Shown here one piece after another: positions 1,827 through 15,196 of a DNA stretch of 24,921 bases. The position numbers and the translations under genes were made by a program. The notes under the pieces were generated by a model. The model made no database searches. It was given only the letters and a program-made list of their open reading frames with translations, and was not told the origin of the DNA. How positions within the stretch are numbered: position 1 is the stretch's first letter; each line of letters starts with the position of its first letter. This stretch comes from Candidatus Aminicenantes bacterium UBA4085 (GTDB lineage Bacteria; Acidobacteriota; Aminicenantia; Aminicenantales; UBA4085): the NCBI GenBank assembly GCA_002383325.1, contig DFYJ01000111.1:25183-50103 (forward strand). The letters run 5' to 3'.

Positions 1827-3110
1827 TTATTTTCCAGCTCCCGGTCGGACCGCCGGCTTTGAGTCTTCCCAATTCTCGATGAAACGGCCCGCGCCGGGCT
1901 TTTCCGCGCGGTCCAGGACGGCCTGCAGGATGGCCTTCATGTTCTCGTAGGGCAGGGTCCCGATGACCATCCGTCCGTTGATGATCATGGTCGGGGTGGA
2001 GCGGATGCCGTGGGAATATTTATCGGAGGTCTTCTCGTACTCCGCCCCGGTCTGGATGATGCGGTCAAGCATGGCCCGAGTCCCCGGATCGGTCAAGGCC
2101 GCCTCCAAGCCGTAGCGCGCCATCAGATCGGCCCTCCACTCGGGCTTCTTGGCCTCCTGGTAACTGGCGAAAATCTCCTCCAACAGGGACGGGAAGCGCC
2201 CCGGATCATGGGCCGCGATGAGAGCTAGGTCGCAACCGCCCGGATGGATGTCCTTCTCGACAACGTCGTTGCACTTGCCCTCCAGGGGAAAGAACTGGAA
2301 GGCGATGTTCATCTTGCCCGGGAAGTCCCTCTTCAGCTGGTTCAGCTGCTGGTGAAGGAAAAGGCAGTCGGGGCAGGTGAAGTCGGAATACTCGATGATC
2401 CGGATCGGCGCATCCTCCCAACGCTCGGCGGCCGAGGCCACCCGGTAGGGCGAGATAAAGCTTGGCTCGGGGACGACGGCCAAGCCATAGAACTCCTCGA
2501 CCATCTTGGCCGCTGTGCCGCCCCGCTGGGCCTGCCGCTTGGCCGCCGTGAACTCGTGGAAGCCGTAGCCGCCCGCGCCGAGCCCGACGGCGGCGGCGAT
2601 CAGGACGGCGATGGACGGCTTGAGATAGGAACCCAAGAGGCGGCCGATCCCCCGGCCCCCGCCGCGCAGCCCGAATTTCCAGAAGAGGAAGAAGCTGATC
2701 AGGGAGAAGAGGTAGTACCCGCTGCAGAGCAAGCAGACCTTCTTGAGAGCGAAGATGGAGTACCCCAGGAGGGCCAGGACGCCCACGGCATTGAGCAGGG
2801 CCAGCGACTTGTTGGACCGCTCGAAGCGCGGCGAGGGGAAGACGGCGCCCAGCACGACGAGGGCTCCGACGACCAGCCCGGGCCAGCCCATCGGCACACC
2901 CCAAACCTGGGCGATCGAAGAGAAGGCCGAAGCGTCGCAGTTGAAGAAAGCGCTGATGTCGCAGAAGGCGCCCTTGTAGATCGAGTCGGGGAAGTTGGCC
3001 AGGTAGAAATGGCGGATGGTCATGATCGAAGAGGCGATCATGCCCGACCCGGCCAGGAAGCTCCATAATCGTCGCCAGGGATGGTTGCCGACTGTTAAGG
3101 CGTGTTCCAT
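1827..3110 (-). CDS. VKOR-DsbA fusion: membrane disulfide-bond-forming protein
   Basis: 427 residues from the ATG at 3110. AGGAGG about 6 bases upstream decides this start over an upstream in-frame codon. Residues 15-150 are a vitamin K epoxide reductase four-helix membrane domain with loop cysteines C50 and C58 (CDISAFFNC) and the quinone-side C126-L-L-C129. After another membrane segment (about 164-182), residues 235-400 form a thioredoxin/DsbA domain with active site C246-P-D-C249, a second cysteine pair (C280, C293) and the cis-proline loop STPTMIING (P373). VKOR reoxidises DsbA with quinone, so one polypeptide makes periplasmic disulfides and passes the electrons to the membrane. The placement directly ahead of a ComEA-like gene recalls the need of competence proteins for oxidants such as BdbDC, but this is only context. 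Confidence 0.93.
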   Translation of the reverse strand: MEHALTVGNHPWRRLWSFLAGSGMIASSIMTIRHFYLANFPDSIYKGAFCDISAFFNCDASAFSSIAQVWGVPMGWPGLVVGALVVLGAVFPSPRFERSNKSLALLNAVGVLALLGYSIFALKKVCLLCSGYYLFSLISFFLFWKFGLRGGGRGIGRLLGSYLKPSIAVLIAAAVGLGAGGYGFHEFTAAKRQAQRGGTAAKMVEEFYGLAVVPEPSFISPYRVASAAERWEDAPIRIIEYSDFTCPDCLFLHQQLNQLKRDFPGKMNIAFQFFPLEGKCNDVVEKDIHPGGCDLALIAAHDPGRFPSLLEEIFASYQEAKKPEWRADLMARYGLEAALTDPGTRAMLDRIIQTGAEYEKTSDKYSHGIRSTPTMIINGRMVIGTLPYENMKAILQAVLDRAEKPGAGRFIENWEDSKPAVRPGAGK

Positions 3111-3144
3111 GGGGGCCTCCTGTGCGGTCCATTCTATCAAAAAA

Positions 3145-6725: not shown

Positions 6726-6754
6726 TTGACACATCAATATTTGTATATTACAAT
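6726..6754 (+). promoter_or_regulatory. Sigma-70-type promoter of marR-hgcA-hgcB
   Basis: TTGACA (6726-6731), an exact 17-base spacer, and TACAAT (6749-6754, 5 of 6 consensus). It lies in an AT-rich stretch about 30 bases before the MarR start codon. This is the best promoter in the window. Confidence 0.8.
6741..6753. promoter_or_regulatory. Putative MarR operator overlapping the -10 box
   Basis: TTGTA-TAT-TACAA is a perfect 5-base inverted repeat around a 3-base centre. It covers the end of the spacer and most of the -10 hexamer. MarR proteins usually bind such AT-rich palindromes as dimers, and a site here would block RNA polymerase, giving autorepression of the operon. Binding is inferred from position and symmetry only. 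Confidence 0.55.
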
Positions 6755-6783
6755 TATGGTTACGGTAAACTTTAGGATTTTAC

Positions 6784-7254
6784 ATGGAAGAACAAAAAAT
6801 TAGGAATCTGCGGGAAAAACTTCGCATCCTCGAACGCGAGTCCGGCGGAGTCTTTGAGGGCCAAGATGACTGCTGCGGGGTGACGGCAGCCCAATGCCAC
6901 ACACTCCTTGAAATCGGCTCTCGCGGCGAGATTAGCCTGATCGACCTGGCCGCCGCTCTCGGCCTGGACGCCAGCACCATGAGCCGGACGATCCAAGGCC
7001 TGGTCCTGATCGGCCTTGTCGACCGCCAGGCCAGCCAGGAAGACCGGCGCTTCGTGAAGATCAGCCTGACCGGCCAGGGCCGCCGGGTCATGGCCGACAT
7101 TGAGACCCGCTACAACGCCTACTACGACCAAGTCATCGCCCTTCTGCCTGAAGACAGGCGCGGCGGCGTGCTGGCCGCCATCGGCGAATTCGCCGACGCG
7201 ATCCGCACGCTCAACGAATCGACCGGCTGCTGCCGAAAAGGACGCCGGCCATGA
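6784..7254 (+). CDS. Cysteine-rich MarR-family regulator of the hgcAB operon
   Basis: 156 residues. The ATG at 6784 is preceded by TAGGA six bases upstream. The winged helix-turn-helix is clear: ISLIDLAAALGLDASTMSRT (50-69) as the recognition region, then LVLIGLVDRQASQEDRRFVK (73-92) as the wing with the D-R-R motif typical of MarR. There are five cysteines: C30-C31 and C38 in DDCCGVTAAQC ahead of the DNA-binding domain, and C149-C150 near the end. Such paired cysteines suit sensing of a thiophilic metal or metalloid, or of redox state, though no ligand can be read from sequence. Its TGA overlaps the hgcA ATG (ATGA at 7251-7254), so the genes are co-transcribed and probably translationally coupled. 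The palindrome in its own promoter suggests autoregulation. Confidence 0.9.
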   Translation: MEEQKIRNLREKLRILERESGGVFEGQDDCCGVTAAQCHTLLEIGSRGEISLIDLAAALGLDASTMSRTIQGLVLIGLVDRQASQEDRRFVKISLTGQGRRVMADIETRYNAYYDQVIALLPEDRRGGVLAAIGEFADAIRTLNESTGCCRKGRRP

Positions 7255-8405
7255 GCAAGATGTTCGACCGGTTCCTGAAGAACCCGGAAGAGGTCTCCTG
7301 CGGCTGCGGCGACGGCTGCTGCGGATCGACGGCCGCCCGGGCCAGCGACGGCGCGGAGGCCGATCCCCTCCCTCCCCTGACGCCCACCGACCACCGCTGG
7401 ATCGTCGGATCGGTCGGGACGGCCGTGGGATCCGTTCCTATCGTCTCGACCCGCTTGGCCGGCGGAGACCGTTTCGGTGCGCTTGCCGTCCGCCTCGGCG
7501 TCCGCCGCGCCAGCTACTCCGTGCGTCCCGGGCTCTACGGCGTAGGCAAGCCCGACCCGTGGTCCCCCGTCTTCGTCACCGGCAACTACAAGCTCAGCTT
7601 CGACCACCTGCGCCGCTCCCTGGGCGGCCGCGACGGCTGGATCCTGGCCCTCGACACACACGGCATCAACGTCTGGTGCGCCGCCGGCAAAGGCACTTTC
7701 GGCACGGACGAGCTTGTCGCCCGGATGGAAGCCGCCGGCCTGGCCCGCGTCGTCTCTCACCGGACCCTGATCCTGCCCCAGCTCGGAGCGCCCGGCGTGG
7801 CCGCCCACGAAGTTTCCCGGCGGACGAAGTTCCGCGTCGTCTACGGCCCCATCCGAGCCGCCGATCTTCCGGCCTTCCTGGACGCCGGCTCCAAGGCCGC
7901 GCCGCAGATGAGGCTCTTCCGCTTCCGGTTAAAGGATCGCATCATCCTGACGCCGATTGAGGTCGTCACGGTCATCACCCACAAGCTCTTCCTGGCGATG
8001 CTGGCCCTGTGGGCCGTCGGCGCACTGTGGGTCAAGCCCCTGTCCTTCAGCCTGCCGGCCGTCCTGGGCGCGATCGCCGTCGGAGCCGTCGTCGTCCCGG
8101 CTCTTCTCCCCTGGATCCCCGGCCGGGCCTTCTCGCTCAAGGGCTGGCTGCTGGGCTTCCTTTGGACGGCCGGGTTCCTGGTCCTGAGCGGCCTGCCCGT
8201 AACTGTAAGCGGCTGGCTGTCCGCGGCCGCCTCTATCCTGATCCTGCCTGCGTTGTCCGCCTTCATCGCCATGGGCTTCACCGGCTCCAGCCCGATCACC
8301 TCGCTCTCGGGCGTGGTCAGAGAGATGAGGACCGCCGTGCCTTTGATGATCCTGTCCACCGGCCTGGGAGCGGCCGCTTACATCGCCGCCGCCGTCATCG
8401 CCTGA
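7251..8405 (+). CDS. hgcA: HgcA, membrane corrinoid protein for mercury methylation
   Basis: 384 residues. HgcA carries a methyl group on a corrinoid and transfers it to Hg(II), forming methylmercury. The diagnostic cap-helix motif N140-V-W-C-A-A-G-K147 is intact, with C143 matching the cobalt-ligand cysteine. Around it are other HgcA-like blocks: RPGLYGVGKPDPWSPVFVTG (92-111), GTFGTDEL (148-155), ILPQLGAPGVAAHEV (174-188) and VVYGPIRAADLPAFL (196-210). Five hydrophobic segments follow (about 238-262, 266-288, 297-317, 320-342, 362-384), matching the known five-helix membrane domain. That domain and the cap motif separate it from the CFeSP large subunit of the acetyl-CoA pathway. The N-terminus has an extra cysteine cluster, SCGCGDGCCG (C17, C19, C23, C24). 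Translation overlaps marR by 4 bases. Confidence 0.96.
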   Translation: MSKMFDRFLKNPEEVSCGCGDGCCGSTAARASDGAEADPLPPLTPTDHRWIVGSVGTAVGSVPIVSTRLAGGDRFGALAVRLGVRRASYSVRPGLYGVGKPDPWSPVFVTGNYKLSFDHLRRSLGGRDGWILALDTHGINVWCAAGKGTFGTDELVARMEAAGLARVVSHRTLILPQLGAPGVAAHEVSRRTKFRVVYGPIRAADLPAFLDAGSKAAPQMRLFRFRLKDRIILTPIEVVTVITHKLFLAMLALWAVGALWVKPLSFSLPAVLGAIAVGAVVVPALLPWIPGRAFSLKGWLLGFLWTAGFLVLSGLPVTVSGWLSAAASILILPALSAFIAMGFTGSSPITSLSGVVREMRTAVPLMILSTGLGAAAYIAAAVIA

Positions 8406-8419
8406 AAAGAGAGAAAGCC

Positions 8420-8692
8420 ATGTCGCTTCGCTATCTCGAGAACGTCGTCACCCTCGAATATGCCCCTGAGAAATGCACCGGCTGCGGCAAGTGCGCCGAG
8501 GTTTGCCCCCACGCCCTCTTCGTCATGGAGGAGCGCAAGGCCCGTCTGACCGACCGCGACCTGTGCATCGAGTGCGGCGCCTGCATGCGCAACTGCGCCT
8601 TCGACGCCATCAAGGTCCGACCCGGCGTCGGCTGCGCCTATGCTCTGATGATCAGCGCCCTGCGGGGCCGGCCGGCCCCCATCTGCGAATAG
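8420..8692 (+). CDS. hgcB: HgcB, 2[4Fe-4S] ferredoxin partner of HgcA
   Basis: 90 residues; the start at 8420 follows an AGAG-type site and lies 14 bases after the hgcA stop. HgcB is thought to reduce the HgcA corrinoid and help deliver mercury. Two ferredoxin cysteine sets are complete: CTGCGKCAEVCP (C19, C22, C25, C29) and CIECGACMRNC (C49, C52, C55, C59). The extra HgcB-specific cysteine is present in GVGCA (C72). HgcB of studied methylators ends with a cysteine pair; here the tail is PICE, with one cysteine (C89). Next to hgcA, the assignment is secure. A strong GC hairpin follows the stop codon. Confidence 0.95.
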   Translation: MSLRYLENVVTLEYAPEKCTGCGKCAEVCPHALFVMEERKARLTDRDLCIECGACMRNCAFDAIKVRPGVGCAYALMISALRGRPAPICE

Positions 8693-14113: not shown

Positions 14114-15196
14114 TCAAGCTGACCAAACGCTCGACGCGCCGCACTCCCGCACGGTTTCGTAGAGGGCCAGCGTATTCTCCACACCAGTCTCCGGCAGCAG
14201 ATAGTCATGGCTGGGCGAGGCGATGTAGCCGCCGCCCGGCTTCATGATCTCGAGGATGCGCCGGGTCTCGCGGCGGACAAGGTCCGGCGTCCCGGCGATC
14301 AGGAGATAATGGGTATCGAGGCAGCCGTTGAGGACGAGGTCCCGGCCGTAGAGGCGCTTCAGCCGCTCCGGCTCCATGCCCCGGGCGCTGGGCTGGAGCG
14401 ACTGCAGGGCGTCGATCCCGGTTTCGATCATGTCCGGGAAAAGCGGGTCGAAGCCGCCGCAGCAGTGGAGCTGAACCTTGAGGCCGAAGGAGTGGCCCAG
14501 CTCGGCCAGGCGCTTCAGATGCAGCCCGAAGAACCGCCGGAACATGGCCGGCGAGACAACCGGCCCGTTCTGGGTGCCGAAGTCGTTGCCGATGAAAAAG
14601 ATGTCGATGGCCCCGGCGGCGGCCTCGAAGATCCGGCGGCTGACGGCGGCGTAATAGCCGGCCATCCGCTCCAGGGCCGCTTCGATCAGCACCGGCTCCT
14701 CGACCATCAGGGTCATGAACCGCTCCATCCCGAACAGGTCGATGGCGTCGTGATAGAAGGGCGACCAGTCGCCGCCCAAGACGGCATACTTTCCGCCCCA
14801 GACCAGCGCATCGGAACGGATCGACGAGACATCCATCCAGCCCGGATCGGGCCAGGCGAAGCGCTCGATGTCCGCAACGGTCTGCGCCCCGGCCAAGGGG
14901 TGTGAAAGCGGTTGGCCGTAGCCGTAGCCGGTCCTCTCGACGCCGAAAGGCGTGCGGGAGGTCGCCTCCGGATGGTTGAAACAGGAGGAAGGCGAGCGCT
15001 CCTCAGGGCCGGCGTAGCGGGCGAAGACACGGCGGAAGTCGTCGCCCAGGGCGCGGGAAAGCGCCTCATCATCCCCGCCCAGCCCGAGCTTGTCGCGGAG
15101 CATGGCCCGGAACTCGGGCGAGGCCCCGCACCAGGCCGGGACGCGGTCGGGCTCGCGGTGGGCGAAGGCGGTCAGGACGCGCTCCCGGGAAGTCAT
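14114..15196 (-). CDS. Uroporphyrinogen decarboxylase-fold protein, MtaA-like
   Basis: 360 residues, URO-D/CmuA/MtaA superfamily barrel. It starts MTSRERVLTAFAHREPDRVP, the typical opening of this family. The corrinoid-methyltransferase branch binds zinc through His-x-Cys and a distal Cys; here H244-C245-C246 (LHCCGG) and C292 (NGCLD) fit that pattern, and SPSHDY (328-332) adds a late conserved His. Heme-synthesis HemE enzymes lack this zinc set, so a methyltransferase-type role is more likely, but no corrinoid partner protein lies next to it. It leads the fucosidase-mutarotase-symporter run, and members of this family are often found in sugar loci, where their job is unknown. Its Shine-Dalgarno is weak. 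It is divergent from pyrE. Confidence 0.8.
   Translation of the reverse strand: MTSRERVLTAFAHREPDRVPAWCGASPEFRAMLRDKLGLGGDDEALSRALGDDFRRVFARYAGPEERSPSSCFNHPEATSRTPFGVERTGYGYGQPLSHPLAGAQTVADIERFAWPDPGWMDVSSIRSDALVWGGKYAVLGGDWSPFYHDAIDLFGMERFMTLMVEEPVLIEAALERMAGYYAAVSRRIFEAAAGAIDIFFIGNDFGTQNGPVVSPAMFRRFFGLHLKRLAELGHSFGLKVQLHCCGGFDPLFPDMIETGIDALQSLQPSARGMEPERLKRLYGRDLVLNGCLDTHYLLIAGTPDLVRRETRRILEIMKPGGGYIASPSHDYLLPETGVENTLALYETVRECGASSVWSA

What the first reader, a model, noticed from the sequence alone, without database searches (positions are those of the whole stretch)
6726..8692. A marR-hgcA-hgcB operon: mercury methylation under a cysteine-rich MarR regulator
The sequence shows a near-consensus promoter, an operator-like palindrome on its -10 box, a five-cysteine MarR gene, and hgcA and hgcB read through with a 4-base overlap and a 14-base gap. 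HgcA has NVWCAAGK with the cobalt-ligand cysteine, and HgcB has both iron-sulfur sets. hgcAB is established as the gene pair needed for methylmercury production. Control is poorly understood in general, and arsR-like neighbours have been discussed for other methylators; a co-transcribed cysteine-rich MarR overlapping hgcA suggests direct local control. That the regulator senses Hg(II) or a related thiophile is inference.
Basis: partly seen in the sequence, partly recalled or inferred. Interest (0 to 1): 0.93.

Follow-up and report, generated by a model that had tools for sequence, protein, structure and literature searches.

The report
Arsenic-type switch before mercury-methylation genes
A bacterial pair of predicted mercury-methylating genes sits directly behind a cysteine-rich switch gene whose relatives, many with the same DNA control site, sit in front of arsenic-methylating genes in other bacteria, so arsenic-like metals would likely help decide when methylmercury is made.

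Summary
The window carries a near-consensus promoter (11 of 12), a perfect palindrome TTGTA-N3-TACAA on its -10 box (6741-6753), a five-cysteine marR, and hgcA and hgcB that pass curated family cut-offs. The linkage is conserved: this MarR type lies directly upstream of hgcA in 45 of 130 distinct hgcA loci examined, in groups chosen around MarR carriers, and MarR distances track HgcA's (r 0.70). Of 80 family loci, 32 are followed by hgcA, 33 by a SAM methyltransferase (28 of these ArsM) and 10 by an ArsN-like gene. The generalised palindrome TTGYANNNTRCAA stands before 28 of 53 hgcA-type and 24 of 33 methyltransferase-type marR genes, against 2 of 656 control starts. Best reading: a local autorepressor, predicted to respond to As(III)-like thiophiles; binding and ligand are untested. 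ArsR control of hgcAB, and a MarR upstream of hgcA in two organisms, are already in print; my searches of the held library turned up no account of this family, its operator or its sharing with arsM.

The parts
6726..6754 (+). sigma-70-type promoter, TTGACA (6726-6731), 17-base spacer, TACAAT (6749-6754)
   Evidence: 11 of 12 matches; activity not tested
6741..6753 (.). operator-like palindrome TTGTA-N3-TACAA on the -10 box
   Evidence: only match in the window; recurs upstream of marR across phyla; binding not tested
6784..7254 (+). marR, 156 aa MarR-family regulator
   Evidence: PF01047 48.8 bits; model mean pLDDT 85 with a MarR fold
6871..6897 (+). codons of MarR C30, C31 and C38 (motif CCGVTxxQCH)
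   Evidence: C30 in 103 of 103, C31 in 96 of 103, C38 in 100 of 103 family members; metal binding is inference
7228..7233 (+). codons of MarR C149 and C150 (C-terminal cysteine pair)
   Evidence: C149 in 77 and C150 in at least 79 of 103
7251..8405 (+). hgcA, 384 aa corrinoid protein of mercury methylation
   Evidence: NF040863 420.8 bits, cut-off 275
7299..7322 (+). HgcA N-terminal cysteine motif C17-x-C19-x3-C23-C24
   Evidence: C17, C23 and C24 nearly invariant in 22 close HgcA; function unknown
7668..7691 (+). HgcA cap-helix motif NVWCAAGK with the predicted cobalt-ligand C143
   Evidence: N140-G146 invariant and K147 nearly invariant in 22 sequences
8420..8692 (+). hgcB, 90 aa two-cluster ferredoxin; Cys73-equivalent and one C-terminal cysteine
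   Evidence: NF040864 119.6 bits, cut-off 99

Best explanation
The three genes likely form one operon whose first product, a MarR-family protein, is predicted to repress its own promoter by binding the palindrome TTGTA-N3-TACAA on the -10 box and to let go when a thiophilic metalloid or metal, most likely As(III), binds its cysteines. Shown: the gene order and spacing, the family memberships, the conserved cysteines, the recurring palindrome at the promoter, the linkage across phyla, and the same MarR family and palindrome before arsM/ars genes in other bacteria. Inferred: co-transcription, binding, repression rather than activation, the cysteine site (C30 with C31/C38 and perhaps C149/C150 of either subunit), the ligand, and Hg methylation by this organism. 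The control looks local: in some relatives the whole genome holds the site once, at this promoter.
For: Linkage: MarR of this family (95 bits or more) directly upstream and co-directional in 15 of 24, 12 of 30, 15 of 26, 2 of 22 and 1 of 28 hgcA loci of five groups, 45 of 130 in all. The family is sharply bounded: in 20 genomes, one member each at 151-240 bits and the next MarR at 71 or less. Operator: all ten specified bases of TTGYANNNTRCAA within 110 bp of the marR start in 29 of 54 distinct hgcA-type promoters with the window, shuffled mean 0.07; 28 of 53 without the window, against 2 of 656 other gene starts in the same loci; 0 of 56 hgcA starts that lack the MarR. Single site: G099, G092 and G089 (3 of 10) hold the exact site once, 687-696 bp before the hgcA core; G565, G010 and G1002 (3 of 12) hold the longer site once, at this promoter. 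Arsenic kin: of 80 family loci 33 are followed by a SAM methyltransferase, 28 of them ArsM, and 10 by an ArsN-like gene, often with arsR, acr3 and arsD nearby. Co-inheritance: r 0.703 over 51 MarR-HgcA pairs, 0 of 999 permutations as high.
Against: No binding, expression or ligand data exist for this protein. Most hgcA loci examined (85 of 130) lack it at 95 bits, so it is one of several regulators. The MarR label needs 18 changes on the HgcA tree, at least 15 forced (three of its no-MarR rows are cut off upstream or masked, which inflates this a little). Of ten relatives scanned for the exact palindrome, five had none, G001 among them, whose promoter carries it with one mismatch; G056 and G101 hold theirs away from hgcA. 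Of twelve scanned for the longer site six had none, and none of the four in G007 is at its marR promoter. The motif was generalised (Y/R) after looking at the loci; with the window's exact arms the counts fall to 17 of 53 hgcA-type, 4 of 33 methyltransferase-type and 0 of 10 ArsN-type, control 2 of 656; at nine of ten bases the generalised form also hits 15 of 656 controls and 4 of 56 hgcA starts without the MarR.
Confidence: 0.7

Rival explanations
1. The MarR senses Hg(II) itself and is a dedicated mercury switch for hgcAB; its arsM-linked relatives would have a different ligand.
For: Five cysteines, a family tree with one 45-row clade that is almost wholly hgcA-linked (42 hgcA), and genomes with one site only.
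Against: The core cysteines are the same in hgcA-linked and arsM-linked members, and the palindrome recurs before both. No mer genes are among the neighbour families that I named, but most neighbour families were not annotated.
Confidence: 0.15
2. It is a redox or electrophile switch of the OhrR/MexR kind: the cysteines form disulfides or adducts under oxidative or reactive-sulfur stress, and metals are incidental.
For: Cysteine switches are common in the MarR family (recalled), and MexR and MarR structures are among the fold matches.
Against: Of 48 non-hgcA loci of the family, 28 are followed by ArsM and 10 by an ArsN-like gene (the ArsN representative scored below its cut-off), which points to a metalloid signal.
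Confidence: 0.12
3. The MarR is an activator or a bystander carried along with hgcAB, with no repression at this promoter.
For: No expression data; linkage alone can follow from shared transfer.
Against: The palindrome lies on the -10 box, where a bound protein would block polymerase, and it goes with the MarR: 0 of 56 hgcA starts without the MarR carry it in full.
Confidence: 0.08

Closest known systems
ArsR-like regulator of hgcAB in Pseudodesulfovibrio mercurii ND132 (Gionfriddo et al. 2023; paper not held; seen only as cited in passages of PMC10349881, and PMC12953829)
   Same: A small DNA-binding regulator upstream of hgcAB that is linked to arsenic.
   Different: ArsR/SmtB family; the window's protein is MarR-family with no ArsR HTH_5 match and lies at its own palindrome.
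[quoted passage not shown]
   Same: A MarR-family gene upstream of hgcA, in genomes that the paper counts among confirmed methylators.
   Different: One sentence in the passages seen, with no subfamily, cysteines, operator or arsM link. Whether those two belong to this family was not tested.
[quoted passage not shown] 2020, PMC7438021; passages, one section read)
   Same: A conserved gene immediately upstream of hgcAB across phyla.
   Different: Its family is not named in the parts seen; it may or may not be this MarR. Its table was not available.
MarR-arsM and MarR-ars operons, mostly of Clostridia (among L014-L079)
   Same: Same MarR family, same core cysteines, same generalised palindrome.
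   Different: The downstream gene is the SAM-dependent arsenite methyltransferase or ArsN-like/ars genes rather than the corrinoid hgcAB.
Zinc-sensing MarR proteins ZitR and AdcR (PDB 5yhx, 6fi9, 5jls)
   Same: MarR fold; PDB titles show that ZitR C30 and H42 were mutated, and C30 has the same number as the window's first conserved cysteine.
   Different: ZitR is titled zinc-responsive; control of zinc uptake genes by both is recalled. Low sequence identity (13-19% in the rows shown); residue-level equivalence was not checked.

Membership tests
HgcA | match to NCBIfam equivalog NF040863 over its cut-off | tested here: met
   420.8 bits against 275, model positions 1-324 of 325
HgcA | cap-helix motif N(V/I)WCA(A/G)GK with the ligand cysteine | tested here: met
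   NVWCAAGK at residues 140-147; the motif itself is recalled
HgcA | methylates Hg(II) | not testable with these tools
   no assay
HgcB | match to NF040864 over its cut-off, with two [4Fe-4S] motifs | tested here: met
   119.6 bits against 99; both motifs in the translation
HgcB | Cys73-equivalent and at least one C-terminal cysteine | tested here: met
   GVGC and PICE; the need for them in ND132 is from passages of PMC7305189
HgcAB-like fusion (NF043039) | score over the curated cut-off | tested here: not met
   195.8 (HgcA) and 56.9 bits (HgcB) against 285
MarR | Pfam MarR domain over the gathering score, and winged-helix MarR fold | tested here: met
named MarR models in NCBIfam (BilQ, FabT, SlyA, HpaR and others) | score over the curated cut-off | tested here: not met
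   none of 12 listed; best 40.2 bits against 125 (BilQ)
ArsR/SmtB regulator of hgcAB | ArsR HTH_5 domain | tested here: not met
   not among the six Pfam families at E 0.001 or better
arsM/ars-linked MarR family | CCGxTxxQC core, C-terminal cysteine pair, TTGYANNNTRCAA upstream | tested here: met
   the family and its features are defined here
arsM/ars-linked MarR family | response to As(III) | not testable with these tools
   no binding or expression data

The most novel reading that the evidence does not exclude
hgcAB is natively part of the arsenic response: one MarR switch and one operator govern SAM-dependent arsenic methylation in Clostridia and corrinoid mercury methylation in Aminicenantes, Spirochaetes and Syntrophomonads, with ArsR as the interchangeable alternative. 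As(III), not Hg(II), would be the inducer, so arsenic would set methylmercury output in these lineages, and the native job of HgcAB would lie in thiophilic-metalloid chemistry.
Probability: 0.38. Interest if true: 0.86.

Novelty: new variant of a known kind. Interest (0 to 1): 0.68.

Why it matters
What switches hgcAB on, and what HgcAB is natively for, are open questions (PMC10349881, passages). A second, unrelated regulator family that hgcAB shares with arsenic methylation, with a defined palindrome, makes the arsenic link testable in uncultured methylators that lack the ArsR. The family profile and motif also give a sequence marker for which methylators carry this switch.

Tried and rejected
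Considered and dropped: (1) That the HgcA N-terminal cysteines mark MarR-linked loci: two or more cysteines occur in 58 of 76 HgcA tails with the MarR and 38 of 56 without it (repeat loci included, start codons chosen by script). (2) That cysteines moved from the HgcB tail to HgcA: the Aminicenantes-type HgcB have one or two C-terminal cysteines and 76 of 106 tails surveyed have three or more, but the HgcA tails of the others are often cysteine-bearing too. (3) A wider regulon: the four longer sites in G007 and the second one in G1185 lie in or at the edge of reading frames, and the one in G516 lies just past the 3' end of an ArsR-like gene. The sites of G056 and G101 were not followed.

Print searches: 'hgcA' with 'MarR' as whole words gave 3 papers, of which PMC10349881 is relevant; the other two were judged by title and abstract start. 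One search gave that same paper alone, none. Searches were seen as listings (30 of 290, 2 of 2, 25 of 91 and 15 of 61 papers); PMC8060452, PMC8649762 and PMC7862947 were checked by passages and do not describe such a system (unrelated MarR genes, reference list only, a place name). Subscription papers are mostly not held, so absence from print is not shown.

Limits: the groups surveyed were centred on genomes found through the MarR, so 45 of 130 is not a frequency among all methylators. In some searches only the best 30 of 44 and of 98 hgcA genomes had DNA examined. Four loci with under 300 bp upstream were left out. Four loci shared are counted once (in the group), so the group stands at 2 of 22 here and at 5 of 26. 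Below the 95-bit line and not counted: L112 (interrupted by Ns) and five Desulfobacterota loci at 70-85 bits. Of 226 family stretches found, the best 80 were kept. Next-gene classes rest on mechanical reading frames and BLAST clusters. The HgcA search scored 7996 candidates and listed 120.

Full report
What is there. The window carries, on the + strand, a promoter TTGACA-17-TACAAT (6726-6754), a perfect palindrome TTGTATATTACAA over its -10 box (6741-6753; the only TTGYANNNTRCAA match in the window at up to one mismatch, expected 0.35), marR (6784-7254, 156 aa, five cysteines), hgcA (7251-8405, overlapping marR by the four bases ATGA) and hgcB (8420-8692, 14 bases after the hgcA stop). MarR passes Pfam's cut-off (48.8 against 24.6). 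HgcA and HgcB pass the NCBIfam equivalog cut-offs (420.8 against 275; 119.6 against 99). HgcB keeps the Cys73-equivalent and one C-terminal cysteine; in ND132 Cys73 and at least one C-terminal cysteine are needed for full activity (PMC7305189, passages).

Whose it is. No whole genome is held for the window. Its close MarR and HgcA hits that bear an organism name (P0005, P0011, P0116; 72-78% identical) come from Candidatus Aminicenantes or Acidobacteriota MAGs, and in both trees the window groups with L001 and L091.

Linkage to hgcA. I searched genomes for HgcA over cut-off in five groups: 26 of 142 genomes, 44 of 344, 26 of 97, 26 of 348 and 98 of 345. Among loci with at least 300 bp upstream, this MarR (95 bits or more) lies directly upstream, same strand, in 15 of 24, 12 of 30, 15 of 26, 2 of 22 (after removing four loci shared with the previous group; one search prints 5 of 26) and 1 of 28: 45 of 130. 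These groups were centred on genomes found through the MarR, so this is not a rate for all methylators. For 55 loci of the first four groups without the MarR I looked for a same-strand gene within 250 bp upstream and found 46 (mechanical reading frames, some perhaps not genes): 17 of the 46 match the ArsR domain, 2 an SBF-type (Acr3-like) transporter, 2 an arsenate-reductase-type phosphatase, 2 MazE, and 3 match Pfam MarR models as well. MarR and HgcA distances correlate (r 0.703, 51 pairs, 0 of 999 permutations as high). Yet on the HgcA tree the MarR label changes 18 times, at least 15 forced, shuffled mean 37 (two no-MarR rows are cut off upstream and one has a masked MarR), so the switch is often gained, lost or replaced.

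Linkage to arsenic genes. The genome-collection scan with A1 found 226 family stretches and kept the best 80. By the next gene these are 32 hgcA, 33 SAM methyltransferase, 10 ArsN-like acetyltransferase and 5 other (one of the five, L003, runs off its contig). Of the 33 methyltransferases 28 match NF008823 arsenite methyltransferase at E 1e-20 or better. One representative each of the acr3, arsA, arsD and arsR neighbours passed its NCBIfam cut-off; the acetyltransferase and arsC representatives matched ArsN1 and arsenate-reductase models below cut-off. On the MarR tree a 45-row clade (support 100/100) holds 42 hgcA-linked members, and 13 further hgcA-linked members lie among the mostly arsM-linked rest: 9 label changes, at least 5 forced, shuffled mean 34. 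The regulator has changed partners between arsenic and mercury genes more than once.

The operator. In distinct marR promoters with at least 90 bp upstream, all ten specified bases of TTGYANNNTRCAA are found within 110 bp in 29 of 54 hgcA-type (window included), 24 of 33 methyltransferase-type, 6 of 10 ArsN-type and 4 of 5 other, with shuffled means of 0.02-0.08; at nine or more of ten, 47 of 54, 31 of 33, 9 of 10 and 5 of 5, with shuffled means of 0.2-2.1. The motif was generalised after looking at the loci. With the window's exact arms and the window left out it is 17 of 53, 4 of 33, 0 of 10 and 3 of 5. Controls: 2 of 656 other gene starts in the same loci for either form in full, 15 of 656 for the generalised form at nine or more; 0 of 56 hgcA starts without the MarR in full, 4 of 56 at nine or more. 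Of five divergent Desulfobacterota MarR next to hgcA (70-85 bits), L203, L205 and L220 carry the full motif, L219 nine of ten and L211 seven.

Local control. In ten relatives of the window's class the exact site occurs at most once per genome: five have none, and in G099, G092 and G089 the single site lies 687-696 bp before the hgcA core, at the marR promoter; in G056 and G101 it lies elsewhere. In twelve other hgcA genomes the longer GTTGYANNNTRCAAC site is the marR-hgcAB promoter, once only, in G565, G010 and G1002; G1185 has it there plus one site inside a reading frame; G516 has one elsewhere; G007 has four, none at marR; six have none.

Reading. The simplest account is an autorepressor that covers its own -10 box and leaves when a thiophile binds its cysteines. 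As(III) or methylarsenite is the likeliest class of ligand, because core cysteines and operator are shared with the arsM-linked members. Binding, repression, ligand and co-transcription are inference. ArsR control of hgcAB with an arsenic response is in print for ND132 (as cited in PMC10349881); the same passages count a putative arsR upstream of hgcA in 14 of 31 confirmed methylators and mention a MarR in two others; McDaniel et al. report an unnamed regulator upstream of hgcAB in 112 genomes (PMC7438021). The parts that I did not find in the held library by seven searches, mostly seen as listings, are the family, its cysteines and operator, and its sharing with arsM.

Noticed in passing
window 7299-7322: HgcA starts with SCGCGDGCCG, and many ArsM behind the same MarR family start with SCGCGxSCCG-like stretches. 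Cysteine-bearing HgcA tails also occur without the MarR (38 of 56).
   Followed up: partly
window 8420-8692; L001, L002, L004-L009, L091: HgcB of the window and nine Aminicenantes-type relatives have one or two cysteines beyond the Cys73-equivalent, while 76 of 106 HgcB tails surveyed have three or more.
   Followed up: partly
L122:303-1430, L124:290-1420, L171:1032-1442, L172:1041-1451: Acr3-like transporter genes directly upstream of hgcA in two genomes of the Spirochaetota search, and arsenate-reductase-type genes upstream of hgcA in two genomes of the G151 phylum search.
   Followed up: no
L038: marR-hgcAB lies in an ars cluster: ArsA-like and Acr3-like genes upstream and an ArsN-like gene downstream, by neighbour clustering.
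   Followed up: no
L203, L205, L220: Divergent MarR (76-85 bits) beside hgcA in the G159 phylum (Desulfobacterota) search lack C31 and C38 but keep a C30-like cysteine and have one further on, about the fifth long helix by eye; the palindrome is intact.
   Followed up: partly
L071:6488-7771: Sporomusa protein behind the MarR fuses an arsenite methyltransferase to an ArsN2-type acetyltransferase, both over cut-off.
   Followed up: no
L011: Record titled Desulfovibrio sp. falls in the same class as a Syntrophomonadaceae genome in the genome search (G151 within the class of G003), so its name looks wrong.
   Followed up: no
window 1827-3140: Predicted VKOR-thioredoxin fusion upstream of the operon; a look-alike (compared by eye) lies upstream of marR in L006, and one of the same BLAST cluster in L001.
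   Followed up: no
window 14114-15196: MtaA/CmuA-like methyltransferase, below the family cut-off, about 5.4 kb beyond hgcB.
   Followed up: no
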